DNA of 64,000 nucleotides from Paraphaeosphaeria minitans (taxonomy: Eukaryota; Ascomycota; Dothideomycetes; Pleosporales; Didymosphaeriaceae). Of this stretch, positions 2,967-50,810 are shown one piece after another. The stretch's first letter is position 1, and the number at the start of each line of letters is the position of its first letter. Position numbers and translations under genes: made by a program. The stretch lies in NCBI GenBank assembly GCA_015832175.1, contig WJXW01000010.1, forward strand, positions 1,674,001 through 1,738,000. Direction: 5' to 3'. The notes under the pieces are model-generated. The model was not told where the DNA came from and ran no database searches. It saw only the letters and a program-made list of their open reading frames with translations.

Positions 2967-3425
2967 ATGCCTACTAACTATAACTCTATAAAGCGTTATT
3001 ACAACTTTATCTTTACTATTAAAAACTATAGAGTAGTTATAGTATTAAAGTGTTCTTTCTATAAGTTATATTTTTATATTTATAAAGTTTATATTAGCTT
3101 AGGGAAGTGTAGTAAGTATTAGAAATAAAGTTTAAAGTGTAATATAGCTATTACTAGGAATAAGTTTTTATAGTTAATTACTAAGAAGAAGAAATTAGAG
3201 GCGTAAATATTAAAAGTATAGAAAGAATAGAATACTATATTTAAGGCCTTATACGTAGCGTATATAAAAGAGGATTAGTTATTAAAATAGTTAGCGTAGA
3301 ATAAGAAGCGTACTAGCGAGGTTATTATAGTAGAGAGCGCTGCTCTAGTAGAGCTAGAGTTAGAGGAGGACTTAGCGTATTCTACTTAGCCTACTAGTCT
3401 AGCTAAACTTAGCATATTTATATAG
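2967..3425 (+). pseudogene. Antisense ORF of the gypsy element: Zn2Cys6-like cluster plus charged tail (RIPed copy 1)
   Basis: Lies between the pol chromodomain and the 3' LTR, on the strand opposite to gag-pol. From ATG 2967 one frame is readable to 3425, and nearly all its internal stops are TAG/TAA at places where Gln fits. Taking Tyr as mutated Cys where the spacing needs it, the N-terminal third reads C-x2-C-x6-C-x8-C-x2-C-x6-C, the spacing of fungal Zn2Cys6 clusters. A Lys/Glu-rich stretch follows that looks heptad-like (KKKKLEA, KALYVAYIKED, ELELEED). The same layout recurs at 30040-30580 and 50400-50810. Role unknown. A DNA-binding regulator of the element is one inference; an antisense structural protein is another. 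Confidence 0.6.
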
Positions 3426-5478
3426 TTAGTAATAAATAACTTACCTTTTAAGTTCTAGAATAATTCTTTAGTATTACCTTTTTAGGTAAGTTTACTAGTA
3501 GAATTCTTTAATCTTTTACTAATAGTTTCCTAAGTAGTTCTTTAGTTTCTAGGTGTTTTTACTGTGTGGGTAACCTTTCTATTTAATAAGATATATATTC
3601 TTTTACTAATTATAGTCTAGAATTCTTTTAACTTTAAATTTAGTTTTTTCCTTAGCTTAGTAGTAGAAGGTTATTTTAATTAGTATATTAGGGTCTGCTA
3701 GTTCTAGTAGTAATACGTGGAATACTAGGTGTATCTTTGCATCTAGTAGTAGTTCTAACTTATAGTTTACTAGTGATATTTGCTTAGAAATGTAAAATAG
3801 TCTAACCTTAATATAATCTAGTTTCTTATGTTTTTTCTTTTAAGTTTAAAGGTTCTTTGTAAGTAAATATGCTTTATCCCTTTTCTTTAGCTAAGGTGCT
3901 ATTTTTTATTTTCTATTTTAATATAAAATTAGTTACTACTAAGCTTTCTTAAGATTCTCTTAGAGTTATTAGTGTATTTTCTTTATATTTTCTACTATAT
4001 CTATAGCTTCTTTTACTTTAATTATTGTAGGAAATTATTAATTAAAGAGATATAGGTGTCTTTTGTAGTTTATATAGAAAAGTGTATATCCTAATACTAC
4101 TAATACTTTGTTATTATAGGCTAACTATGCTATAGGTAGTAATAAAATCTAGTTATTCTTCTAACTGTTATAGTAGATGCGTAGGTATATTTCTATAGTT
4201 TAGTTTATACGTTCTGTCTATCTGTCTATTTATAGATAGTAAGCTGTTAATAGCTTTTGTTTTGTTCTAAGTAGTGCTATAAGCGTTGTCTAATAATTTA
4301 ACGTAAAGAGCTTGTCTCTATTGCTAATAATAGTTTTTAGGATTCTATAGTGTCTAATTAGTTAGTCTAGAATAAGAAAAGTAAGTTCCTTTGCTGTTAT
4401 TCTTTTAAGACATAGAATAAGCTTAATATACTTAGTTAGTTAGTAGACTATTACTAGTATTCTATTATATTTAATTCCTATTATTAGATTCTTAGAGTTT
4501 AGAATTCTTATAATAAAATCTATAGTAATGTCTTTCTATAGTGCTGTTAGTATTCTAATTACTTACATCTCTTTATATTTAAGATATATACTATGTTTGT
4601 TTCTCTAGTATTTTACATATTTATAGATATAAGTTATTATAGCTTCTTTAATTCTTTTAAAGGTGTAATTCCTTTAGATAAGTTCTATTGTTTTTGTGAT
4701 GCCTAGGTGTCTATACATAGGGTTATTGTGGTATTGTTAGATAATCTTAGTCTATAGATGTTTTAGAACTTCTTAGTTAATTACTAAAAGTTAATTTAGT
4801 TCTACTATTAGCTCTAGAGATCTATCTTTAGCTTTGTAAAAGATTGTAGAGAAGGTTTTTACCTTTTCTCTTACTAGATTACTTTGTTAGCTAAGAGCGT
4901 CTACTCTGCTATTTTCTTTCTTAGCTATATAGATAATTTTAAACTTATACTACCTTATAGTTTATAACTATCTTTATTATTATAGCGTAAGTTCTTTTGT
5001 TATTGTGAACCTTAGAAGGTTCTTATAATTTATATAGATTTCTAGCGTTAAGTAACTAAGCGCGTAGATCCTTTAGTGCTTTAAGGCTTTAATAATAGCG
5101 TAGAGTTCTTTATTATATATACTATATTGTGTTTTAGTATTATTAAATTTATATAAGTAGTAGGTAATTAGGTGCTATTTACTATTATATTCTTATTTAG
5201 CGTAGGCGCCTAGCGTAAGATCGCTAGCGTTTATTTTAAAGCGCAGTAGTTTATCGCTTCTAAAATAAATAAAAATAAGTTCTATAATACATACTGTCTT
5301 AAGGAGTTAGAATAACATTCTATACTTATCTATCTATTTAAAGGGTACGTCCTTCTTTATAAGATTTATTAAAGGTATTGTAACCTTTACGTAATTTTAG
5401 ATAAATTGTTAGTTAAATCTATAGAATTTTAAGAATTCTTAGATGTTCTTAGCTATCTTTAGTATTAGCTAGTTCTTA

Positions 5479-5709
5479 ATGTATTTAACTTTACTTAGTG
5501 CTATCTTAATTCCTTCTGTAGTAATAATATGTCCTAGGAATTTAAGTTATTTAACGTTAAAATTATATTTCTTAAGTTTAATACGAAGGTATGTTTTATC
5601 TAGTGCTTCTAGTACTGTCTATATATACTTAGTGTGGTCTAATTTGTTTTTAGAAAAGACGAGGATATTATCTATATACGCAATAACAAATATGTCTAGA
5701 TATTTATAG
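5479..5709 (-). pseudogene. RIPed gypsy reverse transcriptase core
   Basis: The minus-strand sequence is the counterpart of the RT segment that is readable on the plus strand at 47986-48207 (motif YIDDILVFSKN). It contains the palm motif region and the following KKYKFN segment. The plus-strand open frame in this interval is only its antisense shadow. It is part of the composite gypsy element and not functional. Confidence 0.65.
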
Positions 5710-8061
5710 AGTATGTTATTAATAAGTGCTATAAAAGCTACTAGTGCGTTTATAAGTCTAAAAGGCATAACTTTATACTTAAATAGTCTATAGCGTGATT
5801 AAAACGCTGTTTTCTATTCTTTACTTTTCTTAATTTGTATAAGGTGGTAACTGTCTCTTAGATCTATTATTGTAAATATTTTAGCTTAAGATAGTTAGTC
5901 TCGTAGCTCTGTAATGTTTAGTAGTAGATATTAGTTCTTTATTATTATATTATTAAGTTATTAGTAGTTAATATATAGTCTGTCTAATCTATCTTTTTTT
6001 CTTAACAAATATAAAAGGGCTTACTACTAGTAACTTTAATAGTTGTATATATCCTTTCTTAAGGTTTATCTTAATAAAATTATGTTCTTTAAGGAGTTCT
6101 TCTCCTGTCCTACTATATAGTAGTCTAAAGGGTAGTGTCTTTCCTTCTTTTAGGTCTATTGTAAGATCCTAGGGTTAATATTCTAGTAGGTTTACTTTTC
6201 CTTCTTTTTCTGTAAATATATATGTCTATTTCCTGTACTCTCTTAGTAAGGTAAGGGGTGTACTATTGTCCTCCTTCTTACGCTTCTTAACCTAGTAGTT
6301 CCTACTAGCGTCTACTAAGGTATGTTTCTGTTTTTTAACTATCTATTATAGTATTATATTATTAATAACTTCCTTATCTACTATTATTTTTAGTTAATGC
6401 GTAGGCTTTGCTTATAATATATAATTATAGTGTTTAAATAATATTTTCTTTGTACCCTAGTTAATCTATAGGTTATATATTATTAACTAAGGTAATCCTA
6501 AGGCTAACTTATACTTAGATCCTAGTAAGATATCTATGGTAAGTTCCTCTCTATATTCTTAGACTATTATTATAGTAGTAACCTCCTAGTATATTTAAGG
6601 TGTCTTAGGCATTAGGGATCTATTTATAATATAGATAATATAGAATACTTCTTTCTCTAATATTATAAGTCCTGCTCGTCTTACTATCTAATAAGATATA
6701 AAGTTCCTTTCTACTCTTAAGTCTATAAGAGCTTAAGCCTATATTCCTTTAAGCTATACTAGTAGCTTAACTAATACTATACTTACTATAGTATTTAATT
6801 TAATAAAGGCGTTTTTTTATTTAAGTTTAGGCCTAAAAAAGACATCTATTTATATAGGTTATAGTTAAGTTCTAGTGCCTAGTATACGTTTCTAAGCATT
6901 TGCTTCTATTATTATTCTTAAGTATATAGCTTATATAGATTATCTTCTTCTTCTTTCTATAAGAATGTTCTTCTGTTCTTCCTTCTACAGTCTTTACTAT
7001 TCCTATATACTAGTTAAATTAGTAGTTCTATTATTACTTCTTATATAGGGCAGTTTACAAAGCTGTCTAAATATTTAGCTATATAGTAGTGTTTGTAGTT
7101 TTAGTTTAGACACATGTACTAGTATAGTTGTATATAGTTTCTATTAATAAGTATATTATAGTATTTATTATCCTTTAGTATAAAGTAAGGAAAGTATTTT
7201 ACTTATTATTTATTCTAGAGGTGTTTATTGTAAGCTATAATAAAATAGTCTATCTATATTTATCTATAGCGCAGTTTCCTTCTAGGTTATTTCTTATTCT
7301 CCTCTTTTTCCGCCTTATATTATGTATATGTTGGTTCTTCGTAATGCGTCTATATATAAAATTAGTGTGTAGGATTTTAGTAGTCTAAGTAGTACTTTAG
7401 TACATAGTCTAATTCCTTATTTTTATAGAGTTGCATCCCTTTTTGTGCCTAGTAGGGTTCTATATAGTCCTAAACATTTAGTTTATACTTAGGTAACATA
7501 GGGTTGTCTTCTTCCTGCCTACTTTATAAGTAAAGAGTAGGAGATCTTAGTATCTCTTCTACGTCTTCTACGTTATAGTATATATTAGAGTCGTCTTCTA
7601 GATCTTTATATAATTATAAGTTAGGTAAATCTAATTACTTACTTTATTCTAGTGTCACACGTTAGTAACTAAATAGTGTTATAATAACTTCCTATTCCTT
7701 ATTAGGTTCTTAGTCCTTAATAGTTAGTATATTTAACTTAGTTTAATAGACTTTATTCTTTAATCTACAGTTCCTAGCTATATAGCCTAGTTTGCTATAT
7801 ATAAAGCATTTACAGGTCTTAGTTATTAGTTATTAACTTCTATTAGAGACGCGTTTATTAGGCTGCTTAGGGCCTATTTTTCCTCTTTTTCTTTTGCCTA
7901 TATAGTTAAACTAGATATCTTCTATTAGTTTGTATCTCTAGTAGTTCCTTAGCTATTACTTTTAGATAATTCTAACAGGGTTTTTATAAACTACTTTTGC
8001 TAGTTATCTAAAGCTTATCGCCCTAAGGTTTTAGTAGAGCTCCTGTTATAGTAAGAACTAT

Positions 8062-8066
8062 TCTCT
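8062..8066. repeat. Target-site duplication TCTCT of the copia element (left)
   Basis: TCTCT directly abuts TGTCAG at 8067 and recurs at 13271-13275 directly after CTGACA. The uninterrupted target (CTATTCTCTATTAATCC) is preserved in the second gypsy segment near 14857. Confidence 0.95.
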
Positions 8067-8273
8067 TGTCAGATAAAATGCTCGTATGCGATACGGTATG
8101 ATGATCGATAATGGTTGTGTGTTGATTTTAATTGATGGAATGCTATGTTCTTTGTATTTTTTTTTTTCTCTCATCTCTGTTTGGTTGGTTTGACCCCTGG
8201 GCTAGTGCGACAAGTGTGGTGGTCCCTGCTCGATTGTGCAGATCCGACCTCAACGCCCTCGTTCTATCTGACA
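8067..8273 (-). repeat. Copia 3' LTR (left copy)
   Basis: 207 bp, TGTCAG...CTGACA. The poly-T run has 11 T against 10 in the other LTR; the rest is identical. Confidence 0.97.
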
Positions 8274-8322: not shown

Positions 8323-11300
8323 TCATTGTGCGAGGGTGAGGTCTTCAAGTTGTTGCTGGATCTCCTCAAGAGGCGCTTCGTTCGTTGCGTCAGGTCTCTC
8401 TACTTCTACCAGCCCAAGTTGAGTTAGGAATCCTTCCCACTTGTTGACTGGGAGGACCTTGGTGAAGCCATCGGCGATCATATCTGCCGAGTGCACGTAC
8501 TCCACCTTGATCTTCCCAGTAGAGACTTCTTGTCTGAGCCAGTGATTGTAAATGTCGACGTGTCGTAGTTTTGTCTGGAGCTTGGAGATTTCCTCAGTTA
8601 CCAGTCGAATAGTTTGCTTGTTGTCGCATTGGATGGTAATTGACGATGAGAGTAGTTCAATCCGCAGTTCGTCCAATAGTCGTGATATGAAGATTGCTTC
8701 CTTGGCCACCTGTGATAGGGCGAGAAGCTCTGCTTCGGTTGTCGAAGTTGTGACAGTGTCTTGTTTGTTTGCTCTCCAGGCAATGAGTCCGTCGAATAGC
8801 TTGATAGCGTATCCTTGCGAGCTCTTTCTGTCCAGTGTGTTGTCAGCAAATGAGGCATCGCTGGCTACTTGAAGGCAGTTGCCTCCTCCGAGCTGCAGTG
8901 CTCTCCATCTGGTGCTGGACAAGTATAATAGTACTCGATCGGCGGCATTGTGATGTGCGGAGCCCGGATTTGACAGGAACCGAGCCAGCCTTGAGGTTGC
9001 AAAGGCGATGTCCGGTCGGGTCGTTACTGCCGCGAACAGAAGTGACCCGATTTTGCGTTGGTATTTGTTGATTTCTGAGGGTGTTGCCAAGCCTGTTCGA
9101 GGCTTTAACTCGGTAGCGGCCATGGGGGTATCATGGCGGATGTCTTTCCTATCAGCCAGTCGGCTAATCTTCTCTACGTATGCGGCTTGAGAGAGTTGGA
9201 TCTTCCGGTGACTTCGGTCCCTGATGACCTCTACGCCAAGGAACCACTGAAGGTCGTTTCCTCCAGTAAAGGTGTACTTCTCCTGTAGACGCTTGATTGT
9301 TTGCTGGGCTTCTTGCTCTTTCTGTTTGTGATAAGCTAATACGATATCGTCTACGTAGAAGAAGACGATGATTCCGTCTTTGAGAAGGCAGCATGGCTCG
9401 TGAGGCACAGTCTGGAAGCCAAGAGCTTTGAGTGTTGTAGTGAATTCTTTCTGCCAAAGGAGGGGTGAGATCCGTAGACCGTACAGAGCCTTGTTGACTT
9501 GGAGGATCGTTCCAGGTTTTCGATAGCCGTGGGGCATTCTCATGTATACTTCTCGATCCATCGTTGCATGGACAAAGGCGTTCGTGACGTCGTATTGTTT
9601 GAGCTCCAAGTCGTGGTGGGCTGCAATTGCCATCAGCATTCGGAATGACCGGCTGGCGAGTGTGGCTGCGTAAGTGTCCTGCGAGGTAATGTTCCGTTGT
9701 TGGTCGCCTCGGACGACTAATCGCGCCTTGCACTTCAGCAAGCGATGGTGCTTATCAAGTTTGTAGGTGTATACCCACATACAGTCAAGGATCTGTTGTC
9801 CTGTCAGTTTGATCTTCTTCATCGGTACCTCTGACCATGATTTCATTTGTTGATGGCTTGCAAGATGGGCCTGTTCTGCTTCTCTGAACAGTTCACCCAT
9901 CGGGTGGTCCTCAAGCTTGGTCCGGCACGTTGGCAGAGGTGGGAGTTGACTTCGATGGGGCTTCAAGCCTTTGGCGAGCAATCTCATCATCTTCGCCTTG
10001 TCCACAACATCCCCTCTGTAGTTCCCAACGTGACCGGCTTGGGTTCCCGCCATGAAAGCTGCTGCCCAGGGGACAGTCTTAGATGAACTATGTTGTGTCA
10101 CTTCAGATTGGTTTCCAGCCATTAACCGAGCAAGTAATGCTGCGGGTGGCGGTGTAGATGGAGGAGTTAGGTAATTGTCCCTGATTTTTCTCCCTTGATA
10201 GTAGCCTGGTGGGTCTACTTCGTCTTGATGGTCTGATGAGTCCGCAGCGGCATCATCCTCATGGAAGGACTCCGTCTCTGGTTGCTGAGTAGGAGTTGGT
10301 AGTTCAATGGTTCTCACATGCGTGGCTATTTCTTCCAGCGTGTTGTGCATGAGGTTGTCCATTAGATCTTCAGTCTTCCCATTGAATATAGACTGCTCGT
10401 CAAAGACAACGTCTCGGGTGCTTATCACCTTGGCGAGTGATGGTATCCAAATGCGATAGATGTTTGAGGATCGGTATCCAACAAGATAACCAACCCAAGC
10501 TTTTGGATCGAGGCGTTGCAAACGTGATTTGCCTCGGTGAGTGTCGTCTGTCATCGCAAAGGCTTTGCAGCCGTACGCCTTCAGGTGGGCGAGATTGGGT
10601 TTCCGTAGTGAAGTTACGATCCCATTACTGAACGCGACTCGTGTGAAGAATATCTCGTACGGCGTCTTCCAGTTGTTCGCGTAATTCGGTGTTCGATTGT
10701 AGAGGTATACTGCAGCCCTCGTAACTTCAGGCCACAGTTCCCAGGATAGGTTGGCGTCGAGTCGCATTGCGCGCGATTTCTCTTTATTCACACCCCCTGA
10801 GCGTTCGGCACCTCCGTTCTGAGCTTGGGTGTCTGGGGCCGAAGGCTCGATGATGATTCCTTGGGTCGCCAACCAACGTTCTACTTCTGGTTTGACTGTG
10901 GCAATCTCATTGTCTGCCTCGATAGTCTTGACGGTTATGTTGTAGTGGTTCTTGAGGAATAGGAGGAAGGTCGAAAGTATCCTGATGATCGATTTCGCCG
11001 TTCTGTTGTCGGTGAAGTAAAAGTCCCATTGTAGTCCTGAGAATTTGTCGGTAATCAACATTTGGCTCTTTTCTTTGGTGACGCTCTGTGTTTCGTATGT
11101 ATGGAAATCGATGCTTAGCCTTTCTCCAGGTCCTTCGGTGTTAATCCGTGGCGCGCGCCTGATTTGTCGTTTTGATTTCGCTCTGCCACAGGAGTCACAC
11201 TCAACTGTCGTGATCCCTTTCACGCGCACCCCCTCAGCTTGCTGCACCAGGTGCTCGATTGCTGCTGGTCCAGGGTGTCCTAGTCTCTTGTGCCAAAGCA

Positions 11301-11820
11301 TGGCGGAAGCTTTCTGTGGTGCTCTTTTCGTTCGCGAGGTAATCTTGCGTGCATGATGTGAGGCATGCGAGAGTGATTCATACTCGAGTACCCACTGGCC
11401 GTGGATCTCGGTGAGATTCCCGATGATTGCGTCGTCTGGGCCTCTCAGAGTAGTTGGGTCCACCTGCGTATCCCACCAGATTCCTCTCTGCCTTAGTAGT
11501 CGAAAAGAGACCAGATTGCACAATAGGTCAGGGCAGATAGCCACGTCGTGCAGGACTAGTTTGGTTATCCCAGACTGATTCTTAAGGGTCAGGTCAATGG
11601 AGCCGTATCCTTTTATCCATATCTTCGTATTCCCAGCCCATATGTAGTCTCCGGGCATAGGAGGACGGAAGTTGTAGATGCGGTCGGGGTTGTTCGTAAT
11701 GTGGCAGGTTGATCCTGAGTCAAGGATGAACGACCACTTCAATGGGTAGTCGTCGATTTCTGTCCTGACAGACGCCGATGTGAACGCGGCGTTGACTTTT
11801 GATATTCTCCGTCCCTCTAG
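8323..11820 (-). CDS. pol: Copia Pol polyprotein (protease-integrase-RT-RNase H), read through a UGA
   Basis: Open frame of 1,165 codons that starts directly after the gag stop codon and in the same frame. Domains in order: aspartic protease (ILDSGSTCHIT, Asp codon near 11720); GAG-pre-integrase and HHCC zinc site (WHKRLGHPG ... CDSCGRAKSK); integrase core with Asp in LSIDFH, Asp in EADNE and a later Glu in the NKEKSRAM region; copia-type RT (QYDVTNAFVHA; palm FFYVDDIVLAY at about 9340-9357); RNase H (VASDASFAD ... TTSTTEAELLALS; the CDNKQT segment). It copies element RNA to cDNA and integrates it. No ATG follows the stop before the protease motif (the codon ahead of KWSFILDSG is TTG), so synthesis almost certainly depends on readthrough from gag. 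All catalytic residues seem intact. Confidence 0.95.
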   Translation of the reverse strand, partial: LEGRRISKVNAAFTSASVRTEIDDYPLKWSFILDSGSTCHITNNPDRIYNFRPPMPGDYIWAGNTKIWIKGYGSIDLTLKNQSGITKLVLHDVAICPDLLCNLVSFRLLRQRGIWWDTQVDPTTLRGPDDAIIGNLTEIHGQWVLEYESLSHASHHARKITSRTKRAPQKASAMLWHKRLGHPGPAAIEHLVQQAEGVRVKGITTVECDSCGRAKSKRQIRRAPRINTEGPGERLSIDFHTYETQSVTKEKSQMLITDKFSGLQWDFYFTDNRTAKSIIRILSTFLLFLKNHYNITVKTIEADNEIATVKPEVERWLATQGIIIEPSAPDTQAQNGGAERSGGVNKEKSRAMRLDANLSWELWPEVTRAAVYLYNRTPNYANNWKTPYEIFFTRVAFSNGIVTSLRKPNLAHLKAYGCKAFAMTDDTHRGKSRLQRLDPKAWVGYLVGYRSSNIYRIWIPSLAKVISTRDVVFDEQSIFNGKTEDLMDNLMHNTLEEIATHVRTIELPTPTQQPETESFHEDDAAADSSDHQDEVDPPGYYQGRKIRDNYLTPPSTPPPAALLARLMAGNQSEVTQHSSSKTVPWAAAFMAGTQAGHVGNYRGDVVDKAKMMRLLAKGLKPHRSQLPPLPTCRTKLEDHPMGELFREAEQAHLASHQQMKSWSEVPMKKIKLTGQQILDCMWVYTYKLDKHHRLLKCKARLVVRGDQQRNITSQDTYAATLASRSFRMLMAIAAHHDLELKQYDVTNAFVHATMDREVYMRMPHGYRKPGTILQVNKALYGLRISPLLWQKEFTTTLKALGFQTVPHEPCCLLKDGIIVFFYVDDIVLAYHKQKEQEAQQTIKRLQEKYTFTGGNDLQWFLGVEVIRDRSHRKIQLSQAAYVEKISRLADRKDIRHDTPMAATELKPRTGLATPSEINKYQRKIGSLLFAAVTTRPDIAFATSRLARFLSNPGSAHHNAADRVLLYLSSTRWRALQLGGGNCLQVASDASFADNTLDRKSSQGYAIKLFDGLIAWRANKQDTVTTSTTEAELLALSQVAKEAIFISRLLDELRIELLSSSITIQCDNKQTIRLVTEEISKLQTKLRHVDIYNHWLRQEVSTGKIKVEYVHSADMIADGFTKVLPVNKWEGFLTQLGLVEVERPDATNEAPLEEIQQQLEDLTLAQ

Positions 11821-11829
11821 TCACTCGTC
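11815..11829 (-). promoter_or_regulatory. Probable stop-codon readthrough site UGA CUA between gag and pol
   Basis: The message reads GAC GAG UGA CUA GAG GGA. UGA followed by CUA is an established high-readthrough context (alphaviruses; peroxisomal isoforms of fungal glycolytic enzymes). gag and pol are in the same frame, nothing else interrupts the frame, and pol has no start of its own nearby. This fits programmed readthrough that gives a small Gag-Pol fraction. Inferred from sequence. Confidence 0.75.
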
Positions 11830-13032
11830 AGGGATCTCAGGTGTTGGAGTATGTGACTGTTTGAGAATCCGCGTTCGTGATCGGGTCCTGCTTTGTCCGC
11901 GAATTAGCCCTTGGAATGTTGCGTCGTTCTTACGCTTGAAGTCAATGAGCTCGCTTATCGTCTCATTTGGTTTCCACCATTCGGGAGCTTTGTCTGGGTT
12001 GACATAGTAGCAGTCCCTAATGCTGTGGCGTTGTCCACAGGCAGGGCACTTTGCTCCCCCTGTCGTAGCTGGCTCTTGATCTGAAGGCCGCTTAAGCCTG
12101 GCATCTTTCTTGCCGGCTGTACGTTGGTTACGGGGTCTGCCCCGGTTTCGGTTGGATGGCGCGCTTTCAGCATGAGAGGCGTCCCTGTCATTGCTCTGGG
12201 TGGTTGCACCACCTTCAGCGAGATATGGTGCATTATCAGACACAAAGGCTGCTTTGTGTTTCCCTGATCTAAGGGGATAAAATGTCATCATGTGCTCTCG
12301 GAAGCGTTTCATCATCTCCTTCCGGCTCATGCCAGCTGCAAATCGACCATTGTCTTGAAAGTTTGTAGACCATATGGGAGCAACTTTGTTTACGGCTGCC
12401 AGGAAGTCTTTTGTAATCACGTTCAATTGTGATAGTTCGGCGACTCGATATGTCTCCGCCTCAGTGGCTGCTTGGTCATACTCAGCTAGCCATGTGTCCC
12501 ATTGCGACGCGCTTCTCATCGGTCTGAGTGAGGCGAGGTATCGATCGCGGGCTCGTTCTTGTTCGATTTGTTCGTCGACTCCAACCGTTAACTTCAGGTC
12601 GGCAATCCATTGGCGGAGTGACTTCTCAGGAAGGCAGCACGTGCGCAATAGGTGTGGCGATACGGTCGACTGGATAAAAGCCACGATGTGTTGGAGGCTT
12701 GCTTGTTCCTTCTCGAACTCGTGCCTGTCGTTCTTGTATTGTTCAACAAGGATCTTGTAGTATTCAAGGTCTTCCTTGAATGCCTTTTGTCCTGCTGTCG
12801 ACAGTTCGGTCGGTCTCATTGGGATTTCGACGTTCGCGGCTGGTGCGTATCTAGCAATTACCGGGGCTCTAATAGCTACCGGTTTTGTTATTAGCGGGTT
12901 AGTTGCCGTTGGATTTACTTTGTCCCAGATGTTGTGAACGACGCATCTAGCTTGCAGTTGCGTTATCCATCCTGTGTAGTCCGTATGATCTCTCAGCGTT
13001 ACTGTCGGATCGCGGTAAGGTTGCTGCGCCAT
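11821..13032 (-). CDS. gag: Copia Gag (capsid/nucleocapsid)
   Basis: 403 aa from ATG at 13032 to TGA at 11821-11823. The N-terminal two thirds is the helical UBN2/copia-type Gag region that forms the virus-like particle. A zinc knuckle lies near the C-terminus: C329-P-A-C332, H336 and C341, spacing C-x2-C-x3-H-x4-C, which is one residue shorter than the classical C-x2-C-x4-H-x4-C. A basic Arg/Lys-rich segment precedes it and an SRTRSRTRI stretch follows it. The stop context is GAG TGA CTA G, and pol continues in the same frame. The gene starts about 32 bp inside the 5' LTR border. Confidence 0.95.
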   Translation of the reverse strand: MAQQPYRDPTVTLRDHTDYTGWITQLQARCVVHNIWDKVNPTATNPLITKPVAIRAPVIARYAPAANVEIPMRPTELSTAGQKAFKEDLEYYKILVEQYKNDRHEFEKEQASLQHIVAFIQSTVSPHLLRTCCLPEKSLRQWIADLKLTVGVDEQIEQERARDRYLASLRPMRSASQWDTWLAEYDQAATEAETYRVAELSQLNVITKDFLAAVNKVAPIWSTNFQDNGRFAAGMSRKEMMKRFREHMMTFYPLRSGKHKAAFVSDNAPYLAEGGATTQSNDRDASHAESAPSNRNRGRPRNQRTAGKKDARLKRPSDQEPATTGGAKCPACGQRHSIRDCYYVNPDKAPEWWKPNETISELIDFKRKNDATFQGLIRGQSRTRSRTRILKQSHTPTPEIPDE

Positions 13033-13064
13033 GTCGTATCGGTTGAGGTAGTGAGACTCTTAAT

Positions 13065-13901: not shown

Positions 13902-14312
13902 TGTTAAATCTAAGAGGGTAGCTAGTCCTAAAGGGTTAAAGTTAGTTCTTAGGCAGGAGTACTTATAGAAGGTAGAAGGTCTTATTAATATAATAGTATC
14001 TTACAAAGTGTAATAAGTTAATAATTTAGTCTACTAGAATCTAAATAATAGATTAATAAATAGATTAAACATAAGTATAGAGAGCCTATCCTTATGTTCC
14101 TATATACTAAGGCTGCTTCGCTGCTTAGTGCCACTAAGTAACTAAGCACCTCACGTAACCTGCTCTACTACTTAGTGCTACTAAGTAACTAAGCACATTA
14201 CGTAACCTAATCTAAGTTACTTAGCGTCTCTTTATTACATTTGTAACCCTATTGCCACTTCATCACACCTTTATAAGCGCCTGAGTCCCACGTTGTTATC
14301 TAGTACGTAACA
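13902..14312 (-). repeat. Gypsy LTR (middle)
   Basis: 411 bp, TGTTAAATCT...GTACGTAACA, the least RIPed of the three LTRs. It is the 5' LTR of the full unit and is followed by a second, partial gag segment. Confidence 0.85.
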
Positions 14313-15484: not shown

Positions 15485-15895
15485 TATTAAATCTAAAAGG
15501 GTAGCTAGTCCTAAAGGATTAAAGTTAGTTCTTAGGCAGGAGTACTTATAGAAGGTAGAAAGTCTTATTAATACAATAGTATCTTGTAAAGTGTAATAAG
15601 TTAATAATTTAGTCTACTAGAATCTAAATAATAGATTAATAAATAGATTAAATATAAGTATAAGAAGCTTATTCTTACGTTCCTATATAATAAGACTGCT
15701 CTACTACTTAGTGCCACTAAGTAACTAAGCATATTATATAACCTACTCTACTACTCTATACTGCTAAGTAACTAAGCACATTACGTGACTTAATCTAAGT
15801 TACTTAGCATCTCTTTGTTACGTTTGTAACCCTATCGCCGCTCCATCACACCTTTATAAGCGCCCGCGTCCCGCGTTGTTATCTGGTACGTAACA
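15485..15895 (-). repeat. Gypsy LTR (right, outer end)
   Basis: 411 bp. It begins TATTAAATCT (the TG end mutated to TA by RIP), ends GTACGTAACA, and is followed by the CCCCT duplication. Confidence 0.85.
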
Positions 15896-24297: not shown

Positions 24298-24348
24298 AGA
24301 GTTACCTTCTACGTGTACTCTCTATCCTAGATAGCAATTCTAAGCCTA

Positions 24349-24759
24349 TGTTAAGATCCGAAGGCTAGGCCTCCTAGGATCTTTATATATATCTACATTC
24401 GTTGTTTAAGTGGCACAGCACAAAAGGTCACGTGACCTAATTAGTGTGATTAGAGCGCCAAGACAACTAATTAGACTAAGCACTTAATATACTAAGCAAC
24501 TAATTAGTGCTTAATTAGTTTAATTAGAGCGATTAGTTCACTAATCGCTTAAAGTATATAGGAATGCGAGGATAGGCTCTCTATACTTATATTTAATCTG
24601 TTTATTAATCTATTATTTAGATTCTAGTAGACTAAATTATTAACTTATTACACTTCGTAAGATACTATTATATTAATAAGACCTTCTACTTTTTATAAGT
24701 ACTCCTGCCTAAGAACTAACTTTAACCCTTTAGGACTAGCTACTCTTTTAGATTTAACA
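24349..24759 (+). repeat. Gypsy 5' LTR (U3 variant B)
   Basis: TGTTAAGATCCGAAGG...GATTTAACA. It contains the 12-bp perfect palindrome GGTCACGTGACC (24426-24437) and ATTAGT-rich repeats. The U3 is unlike the LTRs at 2519/13902/15485, while the 3' half is shared. Confidence 0.9.
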
Positions 24760-27700
24760 TCTTAAACACCTTTAATATAAGTACTTTATAAACTCCTACC
24801 TCTTTTATAGCTTTAGGTGCCGCTAAGATTACTCCTATAAAGGATAGTAGTAAGGCATATAAACTTAATCTCTACTTTAGCGAATAATCTTAAACTAATG
24901 TCTAGATTCTTTAGTTAGACCTCTACTTCTTTAACTTAAATAAACCCCTTAAAGATAAAAAAAAAGTTATCTTTACAGTAATATACATATAAGGAGATAT
25001 AGGATTATAGATCTATCCCTACCTTAAAAAGTACCTAGGAATAGACTATAATAATAATAATAATAATTATATAAATAAGTACACTAATGTAGTTAACATT
25101 ATTAAGAATTATAATAACTTTAAAAAATACCTTAAACAACTCTTTAAGATTGCTAATAAGGACTCTATTATAAAAGTAAAAATTTAGACTATAACTTAGA
25201 AACAATTAGTAGCTAAGTATATAGCTAAGTTTTACAGATACGCTGTGCAACTTAACTAGGATAATAAATCTCTTTAGGATATATATAAATTAGGACTTAA
25301 ATAGAAACTACGTAAAGAACTCTTACATAGTAGTGCACAAATTGCTAACCTTAAAGAACTATATAAAGAAACTATTAGGATTAATAGAGAGTAGTTTTTA
25401 CTATAACAGGAGCTTTACTAAAACCCTAGAGTAATAAGCTTTAGACAACTAGTAAAAGTAATTTATAAGAACTCTATTAGAATTGTCTAAAAGTAATAGC
25501 TAAGGAACTACTAGAGATATAAACTAATAGAAGACGTCTAGTTTAACTACTTAGGTAAAGGAAAAGAAGAAAGGATAGGCCCTAAGTAGCCTAATAAACG
25601 TGTTTTAGATAGAAGTTAATAACTAATAACTAAAACCTATAAATACTTTACATGTGGTAAACTAGGCTATATAGCTAGGAACTATAAATTAAAGAACAAA
25701 GTCTATTAAACTAAGTTAAATATACTAACTATTAAGGACTAAGAACTTAATAAGGAATAGGAAGTTATTATAACACTATTTAGTTACTAACGCGTCACGC
25801 TAAAGTAAAGTAAGTAATTAGATTTACTTAACTTATAACTATATAAAGATCTAAAAGACAACTCTAACGTATACTATAACATAGAAGACGTAGAAGAGAT
25901 ACTAAAGTCTTCTACTCCTTACCTATAAAGTAGGTGGGAAGAAGACAACCCTATATTACTTAAGTATAAACTAAATGTTTAGGACTATATAGAACCTTAC
26001 TAGGCACTAAAAGGAATATAACTTTATAAAAATAAAAAGTTAGACTATGTACTAAAGTACTACTTAGACTACTAAAATCCTATACACTAATTCTATATGT
26101 AGATGTATTATAAAGAACTAATATATACATAACACAAGATAGAGAAAGAGGAGAATAAGAAATAACCTAGAAAGAAACTGCGCTATAGATAGATATAGAT
26201 AGACTACTCTATTACGGCTTATAACAAATACCTTTAGAATAAATAATAAGTAAAATACTTTCCTTACTTTACGCTAAAAGGTAATAAATACTATAATATG
26301 CTTATTAATAGAGACTATATGTAACTGTACTAGTATACGTGTCTAAACTAAGACTACAAATACTACTATATAGCTAAATATTTAGACAGCTTTGCAAACT
26401 ACCCTATATAAGAAGTAATAATAGAGCTACTAATTTAACTAGTATATAGGAATAGTAAAAACTATAGGAGGAAAAACAGAAGAACATCTTTATAGAAAGA
26501 AAAAGAAGATAATTTACATAAACTATATACTTAAGAATAATAATAGAAGCGGATGCTTAGAAACGTATACTAGGCACTAGAACTTAACTATAACTTACAC
26601 AAATAGATATCTTTTTTAAGCCTAAACTTAGACAAGAAAACGCCTTTATTAAATTAAATACTATAGTAAGCACAGTATTAGTTAAGCTACTAGTATAGCT
26701 TAAAAGAATATAGGCTTAAGCTCTTATAGACTTAGGAGTAGGAAAGAACTTTATATCTTATTAGATAGTAAAATAAGCAGGACTTATAATATTAGAGAAA
26801 GAAGTACCCTATATTATCTATATTACAAATAGATCTCTAATGCCTAAGACACCTTAAATATACTAGGAGGTTACTACTATAATAATAGTCTAAGGATATA
26901 AAGAGGAACTTATCTTAGATATCTTACTAGAATCTAAGTATAAGTTAGTCTTAGAATTACCTTAGTTAATAATACACAACCTACAGATTAACTAGGGTAT
27001 AAAGAAAATATTATTTAAACGCTGTAATTATATATTATAAGTAAAGCCTACGCATTAACTGAAAATAATAATAGATAAGGGAGTTATTAATAATATAATA
27101 CTGCGATAGATAGTTAAAAAACAGAAGTACACTTTAATAGACGCTAGTAGAAACTACTAGGTTAAGAAGCGTAAGAAGGAGGACAATAGTACACCCCTTA
27201 CCTTACTAAGAGAGTATAGGAAATAGACATATATATTTACGGAAAAGGAAAGAAAAGTAAACCTACTAGAATATTAACCCTAGGATCTTATAATAGACCT
27301 AGAAGAAGGGAAGACGCCACCCTTTAAACTACTATATAGTAAGATAGGAGAAGAACTCCTTAAAGAACGTAATTTTATTAAGATAAACCTTAAGAAAGGA
27401 TATATATAACTATTAAAGTTACTAGTAGTAAGCCCTTTTATGTTTATTAAGAAAAAAGATAGATTAGATAGACTATATGTTAACTACTAATAACTTAACA
27501 ACATAATAATAAAGAACTAATATCTACTACTAAATATTACAGAGTTACGAGATTAACTATCTTAAGCTAAGATATTTATAATAATAAATCTAAGAGATAG
27601 TTACTACCTTATATAAATTAAAAAAGGTAAAAAATAGAAAATAGCGTTTTAATCACGCTATAGACTATTTAAGTATAATATTATGCTATTTAGACTTATG

Positions 27701-30029
27701 AATGCGCTAGTAGCTTTTATAGCACTTACTAACAACGTACTTTATAAATATCTAGATATATCTATTATCGCGTATATAGATAATATCTTTGTCTTTTCTA
27801 AAAACGAATTAGACTACACTAAGTATGTATAGATAGTACTAAAAGCACTAAATAAAGCATGCCTTTGTATTAAACTTAAGAAATATAAGTTTAACGTTAA
27901 ATAACTTAAATTCCTAGGACACATTATTACTACAGAAGGAATTGAGATAGCACTAAGTAAAGTTAAATATATTAAGAACTAGCTAATACTAAAGATAGCT
28001 AAGAACATCTAAGAATTCCTAGGATTTTATGGATTTAATTAACAATTTATCTAAGATTATATAAAGGTCACAATACTCTTAATAAATTTTATAAAGAAGG
28101 ACGTACCCTTTAAATAAATAGATAAGTATAGAATGTTATTTTAACTCCTTAAGACAGTATGTATTATAGAACCTATCTTTATTTATTTTAGAAGCGATAA
28201 ACTACTACGCTTTAAAACAGACGCTAGCGATTTTACGCTAGGCGCCTACGCTAAATAAGAATATAATAGTAAATAGCACCTAATTACCTATTACTTATGC
28301 AAATTTAATAACGCTAAAACATAATACAACGTATATAATAAAGAACTCTATACTATTATTAAAGCCTTAAAGCACTAGAGGATTTACGCACTTAGTTACT
28401 TAACACTAGAAATCTATATAGATTATAAGAACCTTCTAAGGTTCACAATAACAAAAGAACTTACACTATAATAATAAAGATAGTTGTAAACTACTAGATA
28501 GTATAAGTTTAAAATTATCTATGTAGCTAGAAAAGAAAATAGCAGAGTAGACGCTCTTAGCTAATAAAGTAATTTAGTAGGAGAAAAGGTAAAAACTTTC
28601 TTTGCAATCTTTTGTAAAGCTAAAGATAGATTTTTAGAGCTAATAGTAGAACTAAATTAACTTTTAGTAATTAACTAAGAAGTTCTAGAATATCTATAAA
28701 CTAAGATTATCTAATAATACCATAATGACCCTATATATAGACACCTAGGTATCACAAAAACAATAGAACTTATCTAAAGGAATTACACCTTTAAAGGAAT
28801 TAAGGAAGCTGTAATAACTTATATCTATAAATGTGTAGAATACTAAAGAAACAAATACAGCATATATCTTAAATATAGAGAGATGTAAGTAATTAGAATA
28901 CTAACAGCACTATAGGAAGACATTACTATGAATTTTATTATAGGAATTCTAAACTCTAAGGATCTAATAACAGGAATTAAATATAATAGTATACTAGTAA
29001 TAGTCTGCCAACTAACTAAGTATGTTAAGCTTATTCTATACCTTAAAAGAATAACAGTAAAGAAACTTGCTTTTTTTATCTTAGACTAACTAATTAGACA
29101 CTACAGAATTCTAAAAACAATTATTAGTAACAGAGATAAGCTCTTTACGTTAAATTATTAAATAATGCTTATAGCACTACTTAGAATGAAACAAAAGCTA
29201 TTAATAGCTTACTATCTATAAATAGACAGACAAATAGAACGTATAAACCAAACTATAAAAACGTACCTACGTATCTACTGTAACAGTTAGAAGAATAACT
29301 AGGTTTTATTACTACCTATAGCATAGTTAGCCTATAATAACAAAGTATTAGCAGTATTAGGACATACACTGTTCTATGTAAACTATAGAAGACACCTATA
29401 TCTCTTTAACTAATAATTTCCTACGACAATTAAAGCAAAAGAAGCTATAGATATAGTAGAAAATATAAAGAAAATATACTAATAACTCTAAGAAAATCTT
29501 AAGAAAGCTTAGCAGTAATTAATTTTATACTAAAATTAAAAATAAAAAATAGCACCTTAGCTGAAAAAGGGGGATAAAGCATATCTACTTACGAAGAACT
29601 TTTAAACTTAGAAAAAAAAACACAAGAAACTAGATTATATTAAGGTTAGACTATTTTACATTTCTAAGCAAATATTACTAGTGAACTATAAGTTAGAACT
29701 ACCGCTAGATATAAAGATATACCTAGTATTCTACGTATTACTACTAGAACTAGTAGACCCTAATACACTAGTTAGAACCGCCTTCTACTACAGAACTAAG
29801 GAAGAAAATAAATTTAAGGTTAAAAGAATTTTAGAATATAATTAGCATAGCAACGTGTATCTTATTAAGTAGAAAGGTTACCTACACAGCAAAAACACTT
29901 AGGAACTAGAGAACTACTTAAAAAACTATTAATAAAAGATTAGAGAATTCTACTAACAACTTATATAGTATAATAACATTTATACCTAAGATAGTAAAGG
30001 CACTAGATTATTCTAGAATTCTAATAAGA

Positions 30030-30580
30030 AATCCTTAAAAGCGCTCTATATTATAGGGGATAAGAAAGGACCTAAAGGAGTCTTATTAACTACTAGATTA
30101 ACAGCTTTATAAGATTTAGCCTCTTTAATATTCTTCTCCTTAACTACTATTATATCTTTAGCACGCTTATCTAGTAAGTCTATTTACTAATATAACTAAT
30201 CTTCGCGTATATATATAACCTATAACTTCTCTAACACCTCTTTATAGGCTTTAAACGCAGCCTCCTGTGTTTCTTTTAACTCTTTTATCTATACACGCAA
30301 TTTCTCTTTCTCTACTAATAAACGCTTAAACTTAGACTCTAAAACGCGTATATTATAACGTTAATCTTAATAAATATATTCCCTATATCTTCTAGACTAA
30401 ACGTGAACCTTATAAACATAGTTATATTTTATATACGTTAAGCATTTCTTAACTATAACTTTACTAAAGGAGTTAATAAAATTAGTTAGGTAATAGTAAT
30501 AGGTAGTACTAGACTTAGAAGGTTGTTAGGGTATAATATAAATAAGCTAACGCTATTTATAACGTAGGGCAAGCTCTAGT
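30030..30580 (-). pseudogene. Antisense ORF of the gypsy element: Zn2Cys6-like cluster plus coiled coil (RIPed copy 2)
   Basis: Opposite strand to pol, between chromodomain and 3' LTR. Reading downward from about 30580, one frame carries KKC followed by Tyr at each expected Cys position. The restored spacing is C-x2-C-x6-C-x8-C-x2-C-x6-C, identical to the antisense ORF at 2967-3425. A strongly heptad-like segment follows: LESKFKRLLVEKEKLRV, KELKETQEAAFKAYKEV, and YIRED, stop, LY, then IDLLDKRAKDIIVVKEKN. Stops are TAG/TAA at Gln-like sites. The YIRED/IIVVKE part aligns with YIKED/VIIVE of copy 1. Confidence 0.6.
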
Positions 30581-30643
30581 TATAACTAGGCATAAGACAC
30601 AGTTATATAATTTAAGGATAAATCCTAGCAAGGAGGGAGATAA

Positions 30644-31054
30644 TGTTAAGATCTAAAGGCTAGGCCTCCTAGGATCTTTATATATATCTATATTTATTAT
30701 TTAAGTGGTATAGCACAAAAGGTCACGTAACCTAATTAGTGTGATTAGAGCGCTAAGACAACTAATTAGACTAAGCACTTAATATACTAAGTAACTAATT
30801 AGTGCTTAATTAGTTTAATTAGAGCGATTAGTCCACTAATCGCTTAAAGGATATAGGAACGTAAGGATAGGCTCTCTATACTTGTGTTTAATCTATTTAT
30901 TAATCTATTGTTTAGATTCTAGTAGACTAAATTGTTAACTTATTACACTTCGTAAGATACTATTATATTAATAAGACCTTCCACCTTCTGTAAGTACTCC
31001 TGCCCAAGAACTAACCTTAACCCTTTAGGACTAGCTACCCTCTTGGATTTAACA
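30644..31054 (+). repeat. Gypsy 3' LTR (U3 variant B)
   Basis: 411 bp; pairs with 24349-24759 with RIP-type differences (for example GATCCG against GATCTA). Followed by GCCTA. Confidence 0.9.
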
Positions 31055-39493: not shown

Positions 39494-39904
39494 TGTTAAG
39501 ATCCGAAGTGCAGATCACTTGGACCACACATGTAACTATTTCGTGAAGCAGCGTGTGCGGCGCAGTTACGGGTTACGTGACCTAATTAGTATAATTAGTG
39601 ACCTTGACACACTAAGTAGACTAAGCAGACTATAGCACTAATTACTAAGCACAACCTAATTACCTTACTTAGTGTAATTAGTTTAACTAATCACCCTAGT
39701 ATATAGGAACGTAAAAATACACTCTGTATACTTATGTTTAACCTATTTATTAATCTATTATTTAGATTACATTTAGGCTATATTATTAATCTATTACATG
39801 TTATAAGATACTATTATATTAATAAGATCTTTTAATCTTTATAAGTACTCCTACCTAAGAACTAACCTTAACCCTTTAGGAGTAGCTACTTTCTTAGATT
39901 TAAT
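39494..39904 (+). repeat. Gypsy-type LTR (U3 variant C)
   Basis: 411 bp, TGTTAAGATCCGAAGTGCAG...GATTTAATA. Its U3 matches 23091-23502. It is followed by TCTTAAACACTC and about 60 bp similar to the 5' internal border at 24760, after which the sequence diverges. Confidence 0.8.
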
Positions 39905-47985: not shown

Positions 47986-48207
47986 ATGCTATTTAGACTT
48001 ATAAACACACTAGTAGCTTTTATAGCACTTATTAACAACGTACTCTATAAACATCTAGACATATTTGTTATTACGTATATAGACGATATCCTCGTCTTTT
48101 CTAAAAACAAATCTAACCACACTAAGCATGTACAGATAGTACTAGAAGCACTAGACAAAGCATGCCTTTGTATTAAACTTAAGAAATATAAGTTTAACAT
48201 TAAATAA
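47986..48207 (+). pseudogene. Gypsy reverse transcriptase core (longest surviving RT frame)
   Basis: Seventy-three codons without a stop. They cover the RT region LFRLINTLVAFIALINNVLY, the YIDDILVFSKN active-site motif with both metal-binding Asp residues, and LEALDKACLCIKLKKYKFN. Part of the truncated chromovirus; stops lie on both sides. The minus-strand frame over it is a shadow. Confidence 0.85.
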
Positions 48208-50399
48208 CTTAAATTCCTAGCACACATTGTTACTATAAAAGGAATTAATATAGCACTAAGTAAAATTAAATGTATTAAAAACTAGCTAATACTAAAGACA
48301 GCTAAAAATATCTAAGAATTCTTAGAATTCTGTGGATTTAACTAACAATTTACCTAAAAATACATAAAGGTTACAATACCTTTAATAAATCTTATAAAGA
48401 ACAATGTATCCTTTAAATAAATAAATAAGTGCGGAATATTATTCTAACTCCTTAAGATAGTATGTATTATAGAACCTGTTCTTGTTTAGTTTAGAAGCGA
48501 TAAACCACTATAATTTAAGATAGACGCTAGCGATCTTACGCTAGGCGCCTATACTAAATAAGAACGTAACAGTAAATAGCACCTAATTGCCTATTACTTA
48601 TGCAAATTTAATAACACTGAAACACAATATAATGTACATAATAAAGAACTCTACGCTATTATTAAAGCTTTAAAGCACTAGAGGATCTACGCGCTTAGTT
48701 ACTTAACGCTAGAAATCTACATAGATTATAAGAACCTTCGAAGGTTTATAATAATAAAAGAACTTACGCTATACTAATAAAAATAGTTACAGACTACTAG
48801 GTAGTATAAGTTTAAAATTATCTATATAGCTAGAAAAGAAAATAGTAGAGTAGACGCTCTTAGCTAACAAAGTAATCTAGTAGGAGAAAAGGTAAAAACT
48901 TTCTCCGCAATCCTTGGCAAAGCTAAAGATAGATCTCTAGAAATAATAGTAGAACTAAATTAACTTTTAGTAATTAACTAAAAAGTTCTAGAATACCTAC
49001 AGACTAAGATTATCTAATAATACTATAATAACCCTATGTACGAACACCTAGGCATTACAAAGACAATAAAACTTATCTAAAGGAATTACACCTTTAAAGG
49101 AATTAAAGAAGCTGTAATAACTTATATTTATAAATATACAGAATGTTAGAAAAACAAACACAGCACACATGTTAAATATAGTAAGATATAGGCAATTAGC
49201 ATTCTAAAAGCACTATAGGAAGACATTACTATAGATTTTGTTATAGGAATTCTAAACTCTAAAGATCTAATAATAGGAATTAAATACAATAGTATACTAG
49301 TAATAGTCTGCTAACTAACTAAGTATGTGAAGCTTATTCTATGCCTTAAAAGAATAACAGCAAAAGAACTTACTTTTCTTATCTTAGACTAACTAATTAG
49401 ATATTACAGTATCCTAAAAATAATTATTAGTAATAGAGATAAGCTTTTTACGTTAAATTATTAATTAACGCTTATAGCCCTACTTAGAATAAAACAAAAG
49501 CTATTAACGGCTTACTATCTACAAATAGACAGATAGACAGAACGTACGAACTAAACTATAGAAACGTACCTACGCATCTACTATAATAGTTAGAAGAATA
49601 ACTAGGTTTTATTACTACCTATAGCACAGTTAGCCTATAATAACAAAGTATTAGTAGTATTAGGACATACACTATTCTATATAAACTACAGAAGACACCC
49701 ATATTTCTTTAATTAATAATTTCCTACAATAATTAAAGCAAAAGAAGCCATAGATATAGTAGAAAATATAAAAAAAATACACTAACAACTCTAAGAGAAC
49801 CTTAAAAAAGCTTAGTAGCAATTAATTTTATACTAAAACTAAAAACAAAAAATGGCACCTTAGCTAAAGAAGGGGGATAAAGTATATCTGCTTATAAAGA
49901 ACCTTTAAACTTAGAAGAAAAAACACGAGAAACTAGATTACGTTAAGGTTAGACTATTTTACATTTCTAAACAGATATCACTAGTAAACTATAAGTTAGA
50001 ACTACTAGCTAACGCGAAGATACACCTAGTATTCTATATATCCTTATTAGAACTAGTAGACTTAGAAACGCCAATTAGAACCACCTTCTATTACTAAGCT
50101 TAGGAAGAAACTAAATTTAAAGTAGAATAAATCCTATAAGTATATAACGCGTACATAGACACTAAAGAATACCTTGTTAAGTAGAAAGGGTATTCGTCTA
50201 GTAAAAACACATAGGAACCTAAAGACAACCTATCTAACTATTAATAATAGATAAACAACTTCTACAATTAAACGCTAGAAATTATAGGAAGATAACTAGG
50301 AAGCACCTAGGAACTACCACTAGTATAAGGGCTAGCCTATAAAATAGACTAGTTAATTACCTTAGCGCCTAACAGCGTGTTAGGATTTATTAACGTAGT

Positions 50400-50810
50400 A
50401 GCCTACGCTAACTCCTCCTACGCCTTAAGCACTTCTAATTTATCTATAATACTTATACTATAATTAAATAATTCTTATTCTTTCTAATATAATTTCTTTT
50501 ACTAATTACGTAAGCGCGCTATCTTCTCTTACGCTTAATAGGCGCAAAGAAGAGCTGCCTTAACTAGCTCTTCTTTAATATAGAGCTTTGCCTCCTCTTT
50601 AGCCTCTAACTTTTCTAACCTTTTTATTTTAGCATCTATTTTTAAATAATTTAGTAAAGAGATCTTTTTAGGCTTACACTTCTAGTTTTCCTATTTAATA
50701 TAGTTAGTACACTAAGAGTGTAAAGAAGAAAGATAATAAGTATATTTCTTCTTAGCGTAGTATAAATAGGTAATTATTATAGAAATATAGTCTTTCTTAA
50801 GATAATTAGC
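50400..50810 (-). pseudogene. Antisense ORF of the gypsy element: Zn2Cys6-like cluster plus charged tail (RIPed copy 3)
   Basis: Opposite strand to pol, between chromodomain and 3' LTR. With Tyr read as mutated Cys where needed, the spacing is C-x2-C-x6-C-x8-C-x2-C-x7-C (cluster region about 50680-50800). It is followed by Glu/Lys-rich heptad-like sequence: LKIDAKIKRLEKLEAKEEAK, LYIKEELVKAALLCAY, ELFNYSISIIDKLEVLKA. Stops are TAG/TAA at Gln-like positions. Same place, strand and architecture as 2967-3425 and 30030-30580. Confidence 0.6.

What the first reader, a model, noticed from the sequence alone, without database searches (positions are those of the whole stretch)
2967..50810. Chromovirus family with a hidden antisense Zn2Cys6-like ORF upstream of the 3' LTR, seen in three independent copies
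At 2967-3425 (+), 30030-30580 (-) and about 50400-50810 (-), always antisense to gag-pol and always between the chromodomain and the 3' LTR, one frame is readable if RIP is taken into account (stops only at Gln-like codons, Tyr at expected Cys). All three give C-x2-C-x6-C-x8-C-x2-C-x6/7-C, the spacing of fungal Zn2Cys6 DNA-binding clusters. In the two best-aligned copies the downstream YI[KR]ED...II segment matches; the third has a similarly charged tail. Sequences between the conserved positions have diverged, yet the frame and spacing are kept, which suggests selection before RIP. Inference: the element encoded its own antisense regulator or antisense structural protein.
Basis: partly seen in the sequence, partly recalled or inferred. 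Interest (0 to 1): 0.87.

Follow-up and report, generated by a model that had tools for sequence, protein, structure and literature searches.

The report
Fungal retrotransposon's swappable antisense zinc gene
A mutated family of fungal jumping elements carries, on the strand opposite its replication genes, a real gene for a small zinc-cluster, probably DNA-binding protein, and that gene is exchanged between elements together with half of the element's control region, which suggests a movable regulator-plus-switch unit.

Summary
In six frames of the 40.9 kb of RIP-mutated window DNA examined, the exact C/Y spacing occurs three times, at the three reported places. Relatives with open frames exist in public contigs: of 120 listed, 95 have all six Cys and 25 have C or Y at all six. 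A profile of 32 of the six-Cys ones recovers A (2982-3473) at E 8.7e-17 and B (30531-29992) at E 1.7e-44, but not C. This genome holds an uninterrupted A-type copy (L079) whose antisense frame meets pol tail to tail. The protein has a six-cysteine cluster (Foldseek's weak matches: 20 of 21 are Zn2Cys6 domains), an ~80-residue helix and an acidic, aromatic tail. New here: the antisense gene and the first LTR half form an exchange cassette. A and B share one pol lineage (0.0052 transversions/site, as within A), yet their antisense genes differ at 0.277/site. Cassette LTR halves hold iterated motifs; shared LTR ends do not. Best reading: a retrotransposon-encoded Gal4-like regulator swapped with its operators. 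Anatomy is shown; regulation is inferred. Ten paper searches listed nothing like it in fungi.

The parts
2967..3485 (+). antisense ORF of element A (RIPed; 172 codons plus stop)
   Evidence: HMM of 32 open proteins hits 2982-3473, E 8.7e-17; protein of the uninterrupted copy L079 matches 2967-3479, E 2.7e-42, 50% identity
3051..3140 (+). six-cysteine cluster of A
3482..8100 (-). pol of element A (RIPed); stop at 3482-3484 overlaps the aORF stop by 4 nt in all
   Evidence: sequence; pieces read; similar to B and C pol; the 8100 end is approximate
2519..2935 (-). 3' LTR of element A
   Evidence: other copies of it in the window; polypurine tract beside it
2728..3490 (.). exchange cassette A: aORF, polypurine tract, first half of LTR
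   Evidence: identity to B and C lost between these points
2731..2843 (.). iterated partly palindromic motif array in cassette A
24348..24759 (+). 5' LTR of element B
   Evidence: 92.7% identical to 30643-31054
24760..29989 (+). gag-pol of element B (RIPed): RNase H and chromodomain pieces matched; start approximate
29986..30534 (-). antisense ORF of element B (RIPed)
   Evidence: HMM hit 30531-29992, E 1.7e-44; P0020 matches 30525-30007, 50% identity, E 2.8e-43
30355..30444 (-). six-cysteine cluster of B
29956..30848 (.). exchange cassette B
30643..31054 (+). 3' LTR of element B; last ~206 bp shared with A and C
30732..30849 (.). iterated and palindromic motif array in cassette B
50250..50816 (-). 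antisense frame of element C (RIPed); start codon not identified
   Evidence: one uninterrupted relative among 150 scored genomic copies; not matched by the family HMM
50676..50768 (-). six C/Y spacing match of C (last spacing x7)
50266..51134 (.). exchange cassette C
50900..51343 (+). 3' LTR of element C; last ~208 bp shared with A and B
   Evidence: inner end approximate
51046..51134 (.). motif array in cassette C, spaced 32, 17 and 17 bp

Best explanation
A fungal Ty3/gypsy chromovirus carries a conserved antisense gene between pol and the 3' LTR. It encodes a protein of about 170-200 residues: an N-terminal Zn2Cys6-like cluster, a long helix that probably dimerises, and an acidic, aromatic C-terminus, the layout of a small Gal4-type factor. 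Its start codon lies about 30-35 nt from the LTR in A and L079 (about 110 nt in B), so its promoter very likely lies in or beyond the 3' LTR, read backwards. The gene and the first half of the LTR (U3) form one cassette that is exchanged between elements on the same pol backbone. Most likely the protein binds the repeated motifs of its own U3 and controls LTR transcription (more likely activating, from the acidic, aromatic tail), and regulator and operators move together because they must match. SHOWN: the gene family, its place and strand, the cysteines, the cassette. INFERRED: zinc and DNA binding, dimerisation, antisense transcription, U3 as target, the sign of regulation, and exchange by template switching during reverse transcription.
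For: Open-frame family: 188 proteins at E<=10, best 120 listed; of these 120, 95 have six Cys at the exact spacing and 25 have C or Y at all six. A copies score median 99 bits and B copies 149 against at most 6.5 in 500 shuffles each; other frames of A and B at most -1.3. Own-genome uninterrupted copy with an open pol 3' part (SH3_Tf2-1, Chromo 8.6e-17) and aORF tail to tail. Of 40 pol 3' ends scored (658 candidates), 39 have an aORF hit just beyond pol, all on the opposite strand (31 B-type, 8 A-type; one search matched by eye). Model: helices at both CxxC sites and a helix 66-146; Foldseek: 20 of 21 matched chains, of about eight different proteins, are Zn2Cys6 DNA-binding domains. Cassette: pol 88-91% identical, cassette near random, LTR end 89-91%; transversions/site A-B pol 0.0052 against 0.0049 within A, A-B aORF 0.277. 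Iterated motifs: the 8-mer excess in the three cassette LTR halves is reached by 3, 5 and 8 of 500 resamples, in the shared ends by 384, 175 and 206.
Against: No expression, zinc or DNA-binding data. Pfam Zn_clus stays below its cut-off in every member scored singly (best 13.2 bits against 21). All Foldseek E-values are 0.87 or more and VIA Z for Zn2Cys6 chains is at most 3.2. For 10-mers the motif excess is strong only in A (0 of 500) and weak in B and C (42 and 78 of 500); iterated U3 motifs could serve host factors, and no motif is shown to be the site. C is not matched by the family profile, so the regulator part is unproven for that cassette. The DNA context of the public open proteins could not be read; only contig lengths (often 6-7 kb) hint at whole elements.
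Confidence: 0.6

Rival explanations
1. The antisense protein acts on host targets (chromatin, silencing, defence or integration sites) rather than on its own LTR; linkage with U3 is only because both lie at the 3' end and are copied together.
For: A template switch in pol's 3' part plus strand transfer in the LTR would move the aORF and U3 together without any functional tie (established retroviral mechanism, recalled).
Against: Both exchange points sit near the pol/aORF junction and mid-LTR in all three pairs; cassette LTR halves alone carry motif arrays.
Confidence: 0.2
2. It is an antisense structural or nucleic-acid-packaging protein, not a sequence-specific regulator.
For: A basic N-terminal part (13-16 K+R in the first 65 residues of the five proteins counted) and a long helix would also suit packaging.
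Against: Six Cys in Zn2Cys6 spacing in 95 of 120 and a fold-like match; the Gag CCHC finger type is different (recalled).
Confidence: 0.1
3. The antisense frame is a captured host transcription-factor fragment carried passively.
For: Zn2Cys6 factors are abundant in fungi (recalled).
Against: Conserved in diverged open proteins (55-88% identity to the first of the 32 aligned), the cluster (0.87) and coil (0.81) more than the linker (0.50) and the end (0.47); 39 of 40 pol ends carry it.
Confidence: 0.07
4. Artefact: RIP makes Tyr and stops common, so a Cys-like pattern can be read into any AT-rich strand.
For: The loose Zn2Cys6 spacing gives 13 matches in 40.9 kb of RIPed DNA. For C, homology is not detectable.
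Against: Open public homologues and an uninterrupted own-genome copy; exact spacing only at the three aORFs.
Confidence: 0.03

Closest known systems
Antisense ORFs of plant Ty3/gypsy elements (Retand, Grande, RIRE2; TRP28 domain, PF04195), PMC11963269 (passages and Discussion read)
   Same: Antisense ORF between pol and 3' LTR, in nearly all Retand clusters, predicted to bind DNA; family-specific tandem repeats near the 3' end; a regulatory role suggested by the author.
   Different: Plants, non-chromovirus lineage, TRP28 domain and a long pol-LTR region. Here fungal chromoviruses, a six-Cys cluster plus long helix, a compact tail-to-tail fit with pol, and co-exchange with U3.
HTLV-1 HBZ and other retroviral antisense proteins (recalled; retroviral antisense genes are mentioned in PMC11963269)
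   Same: Antisense regulator gene whose transcript starts in the 3' LTR.
   Different: HBZ is a bZIP protein of a mammalian retrovirus (recalled); no sequence relation was tested beyond Pfam.
Fungal Zn2Cys6 (Gal4-type) transcription factors, Pfam Zn_clus PF00172
   Same: Spacing C-x2-C-x6-C-x8-C-x2-C-x6-C followed closely by a long helix; weak fold match to Leu3, Hap1, Gal4, Ppr1, Put3, Pho7 and other such domains.
   Different: Below the Pfam cut-off; encoded antisense inside a retrotransposon; no large middle domain.
Fungal hypothetical proteins with a similar Cys pattern (recalled; no call supports this)
   Same: A similar cysteine-rich N-terminus followed by a coiled coil is, as I recall, common among unnamed fungal proteins.
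   Different: Not checked; if right, the protein family is already in databases though perhaps undescribed as an antisense gene.

Membership tests
Ty3/gypsy chromovirus | Reverse transcriptase domain | tested here: met
   RVT_1 E 5.7e-10 on a read-through piece of C; A and B pieces align with it at 76-77% identity
Ty3/gypsy chromovirus | RNase H then integrase order | tested here: met
   RT_RNaseH E 1.4e-13 (B piece from 28201), Integrase_H2C2 E 9.1e-10 (C piece from 48901, beyond C's RNase H-like stretch)
Ty3/gypsy chromovirus | C-terminal chromodomain | tested here: met
   Chromo 8.6e-17 above cut-off in the uninterrupted copy L079; B's RIPed piece E 0.0014, below cut-off
Ty3/gypsy chromovirus | Flanking LTR pair | tested here: met
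   B: 24348-24759 and 30643-31054, 92.7%
Zn2Cys6 (Zn_clus) proteins | Six Cys, C-x2-C-x6-C-x5-12-C-x2-C-x6-8-C (range recalled) | tested here: met
   95 of 120 listed open proteins, the other 25 with C or Y at all six; A and B of the window by C/Y columns
Zn2Cys6 (Zn_clus) proteins | Pfam PF00172 gathering score | tested here: not met
   Best 13.2 bits against 21 (P0111); 2 of 32 members at E<=1
Zn2Cys6 (Zn_clus) proteins | Binuclear-cluster fold | tested here: inconclusive
Zn2Cys6 (Zn_clus) proteins | Zinc and DNA binding | not testable with these tools
   needs protein
Retand-type antisense ORF | TRP28 domain (PF04195) | tested here: not met
   Not listed for any antisense protein scanned singly; one search shows only 25 of 43 families
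Retroviral antisense regulators (HBZ-like) | Antisense transcript initiated in the 3' LTR | not testable with these tools
   Start codon about 30-35 nt from the LTR in A and L079 makes it likely
This antisense family (A8 profile) | Element C belongs | tested here: inconclusive
   hhalign P 0.077 in the right register; HMM scores at noise, median -1.8 bits; uninterrupted 209-aa relative

The most novel reading that the evidence does not exclude
Fungal chromoviruses carry a self-contained regulator-plus-operator cassette: an antisense Gal4-like factor and its cognate U3 array that are swapped as one unit between elements sharing one replication backbone, so that the backbone can change its regulatory identity, for example to escape repression or competition among its own copies.
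Probability: 0.45. Interest if true: 0.87.

Novelty: new variant of a known kind. Interest (0 to 1): 0.76.

Why it matters
Antisense genes in retroelements have, in the plant review I read in part (PMC11963269), no known function. A cassette in which the antisense gene travels with its own LTR half, while pol stays the same, makes the function question testable: each protein should bind its own U3 array and not another's. It would be a fungal parallel to retroviral antisense regulators, and would mean that transposon surveys can miss a conserved gene that RIP hides.
Full report
SETTING. The window is G000:C10:1674001-1738000 of a 47.45-Mb assembly in 30 contigs. The three places lie in AT-rich stretches (25-31% GC in 1-kb steps around them). 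Pieces of pol give RVT_1, RT_RNaseH, Integrase_H2C2 and a weak Chromo match. Element B has two LTRs, 24348-24759 and 30643-31054, 92.7% identical. Own-genome DNA searches gave 40 matches for A (40 scored of 192 candidates), 40 for B (40 of 173) and 41 for C (40 of 185), so each is a large family.

THE OBSERVATION. With C or Y allowed, the exact spacing occurs three times in the six frames of three RIPed stretches (40.9 kb), at 3051 (+), 30444 (-) and 50768 (-), and not in 15.6 kb of normal DNA. Over 29 A, 22 B and 21 C copies the six columns hold only C or Y in 28, 21 and 21 copies; C is seen at all six columns in A and at five of six in B and C (the third column is Y in all 22 B and all 21 C copies). 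As a control, other Y-dominated columns hold C in 22 of 261, 25 of 330 and 24 of 336 cells, the six columns in 96 of 174, 33 of 132 and 36 of 126. Stops per copy are fewest in the antisense frame, by a clear margin in none but against four of the five other frames in A.

OPEN RELATIVES. Three protein searches, seeded with natural copies (X at stops) and then with the hits, gave 1, 11 and finally 188 proteins at E<=10, of which the best 120 were listed. Of these 120, 95 have six Cys at the exact spacing and 25 have C or Y at all six; none departs from it; 79 are 160 residues or longer. I read 49 and aligned 32 picked from them, all with six Cys: the cluster is followed by a long charged helix and a tail with conserved Trp. 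A profile of these 32, run over the window in six frames, finds B at E 1.7e-44 and A at E 8.7e-17, and not C. On the copies it gives A median 99 bits, B 149, C -1.8, with shuffles at most 6.5 and other frames at most 2.2.

UNINTERRUPTED COPIES IN THE SAME GENOME. Of 150 scored A/B-type matches to P0020 (362 candidates), 149 carry in-frame stops and one does not. That copy, L079, has an open pol end with Chromo 8.6e-17 and, antisense, a 170-residue frame with all six Cys; the two frames overlap by 4 nt at their stop codons. The window's A and B elements show the same overlap. Against L079 the 29 A copies are 61-68% identical; 3825 of 5192 differences are C>T or G>A (reverse 522), at 72% of CpA and 63% of CpG sites but 19-25% of CpC and CpT; 241 of 314 in-frame stops fall on its TGG, CAA or CAG codons, 71 on CGG or CGT, 2 elsewhere. 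L079 is a relative, not the ancestor. With L079's own antisense protein as query, 149 of 150 scored matches (338 candidates) carry stops; the other is L079 itself. For C, 149 of 150 scored matches (204 candidates) are interrupted and one is a 209-aa open frame, 59% identical; its letters could not be fetched, so its cysteines are unread.

ASSOCIATION WITH POL. The last 401 bp of B pol, used as a DNA query, gave 40 scored places of 658 candidates. By eye against the lists (each capped at 150), 39 of 40 have an antisense match just beyond pol (gaps up to 264 bp), always on the opposite strand: 31 B-type and 8 A-type. The miss is at C9:1473931; the caps may explain it. The query is B pol, so C elements are not represented.

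THE CASSETTE. Between window elements, pol is 88-91% identical up to near its stop, then identity falls to about the level of unrelated AT-rich DNA through the aORF and the first half of the LTR, and returns to 89-91% for the last ~205 bp of the LTR. A slight residual A-B score (45 against 5.4 +- 8.6 for resampled sequence) fits the shared protein family; A-C (21, best resample 21.4) and B-C (14, best 10.5) are at or near the random range. RIP makes only transitions, so I counted transversions: pol A-A 0.0049, B-B 0.0044, A-B 0.0052, C-C 0.0127, A-C 0.0228, B-C 0.0255 (27 A, 8 B, 7 C copies); LTR end A-A 0.0045, A-B 0.0057, A-C 0.0068, B-C 0.0076 (26 A, 7 B, 8 C). Codon-aligned antisense frames: A-B 0.277, A-C 0.391, B-C 0.357, within types 0.001-0.006 (8 copies each; the C alignment is unreliable). 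A and B are thus one pol lineage with two deeply diverged cassettes; C's pol is somewhat apart, its LTR end is not. The loci were chosen by cassette, not by pol.

U3 ARRAYS. The cassette halves hold iterated motifs that differ between cassettes: a 47-bp tandem pair with 14-bp inverted repeats in A, 34-bp repeats and a perfect 10-bp inverted repeat in B, and units spaced 32, 17 and 17 bp in C. The excess of repeated 8-mers is reached by 3, 5 and 8 of 500 resamples, against 384, 175 and 206 for the shared LTR ends; for 10-mers by 0, 42 and 78 against 500, 113 and 142. So the case is strong for A and modest for B and C. The arrays are read in RIPed DNA; the original letters are not known.

HOW IT LIKELY WORKS. 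The layout is that of a small Gal4-type factor, and the start codon lies about 30-35 nt from the LTR in A and L079, so the promoter should be in or beyond the 3' LTR. I infer that the protein binds its own U3 array and regulates the LTR, and that exchange arises by template switching at the pol end and in the LTR during reverse transcription (mechanism recalled). Whether it activates or represses is open.

WHAT IS KNOWN. Antisense ORFs between pol and 3' LTR are established in plant Ty3/gypsy elements (PMC11963269: passages and Discussion read). Ten paper searches (listings) showed none for fungi; the library lacks most subscription papers. From recall only, similar unnamed proteins are common in fungi, so the protein family may be in databases already.

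Noticed in passing
window 8323-13059 (-): Two long open frames that look like a Ty1/copia-type element (1165 and 412 aa; judged by eye from the translation, no domain search), at normal GC, lie inside the RIPed DNA next to element A: perhaps a younger, unmutated insertion.
   Followed up: no
L035:959-1371: An A-type copy whose antisense gene is deleted, so that pol runs directly into the LTR.
   Followed up: partly
L079:2327-2700: Another repeat, 99-100% identical in 13 other places (7 on C15, the rest on C8, C20 and C9), shows no sign of RIP, unlike the gypsy copies.
   Followed up: partly
A copies against L079: CpG sites are changed almost as often (63%) as CpA sites (72%), so the mutation process is not of the CpA-only kind.
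   Followed up: no
window 24658-26506 and 31346-33194: A 1.85-kb inverted repeat (89%): one arm lies in the 5' part of element B, the other just beyond its 3' LTR, so a related element seems to follow in opposite orientation.
   Followed up: no
window 13902-15893, 23169-23500, 33093-33503, 39571-39903: Further LTR stretches that share the last ~205 bp with A, B and C; some match A's first half (80-89%), two match only part of B's (77-78%), which hints at more cassette types.
   Followed up: no
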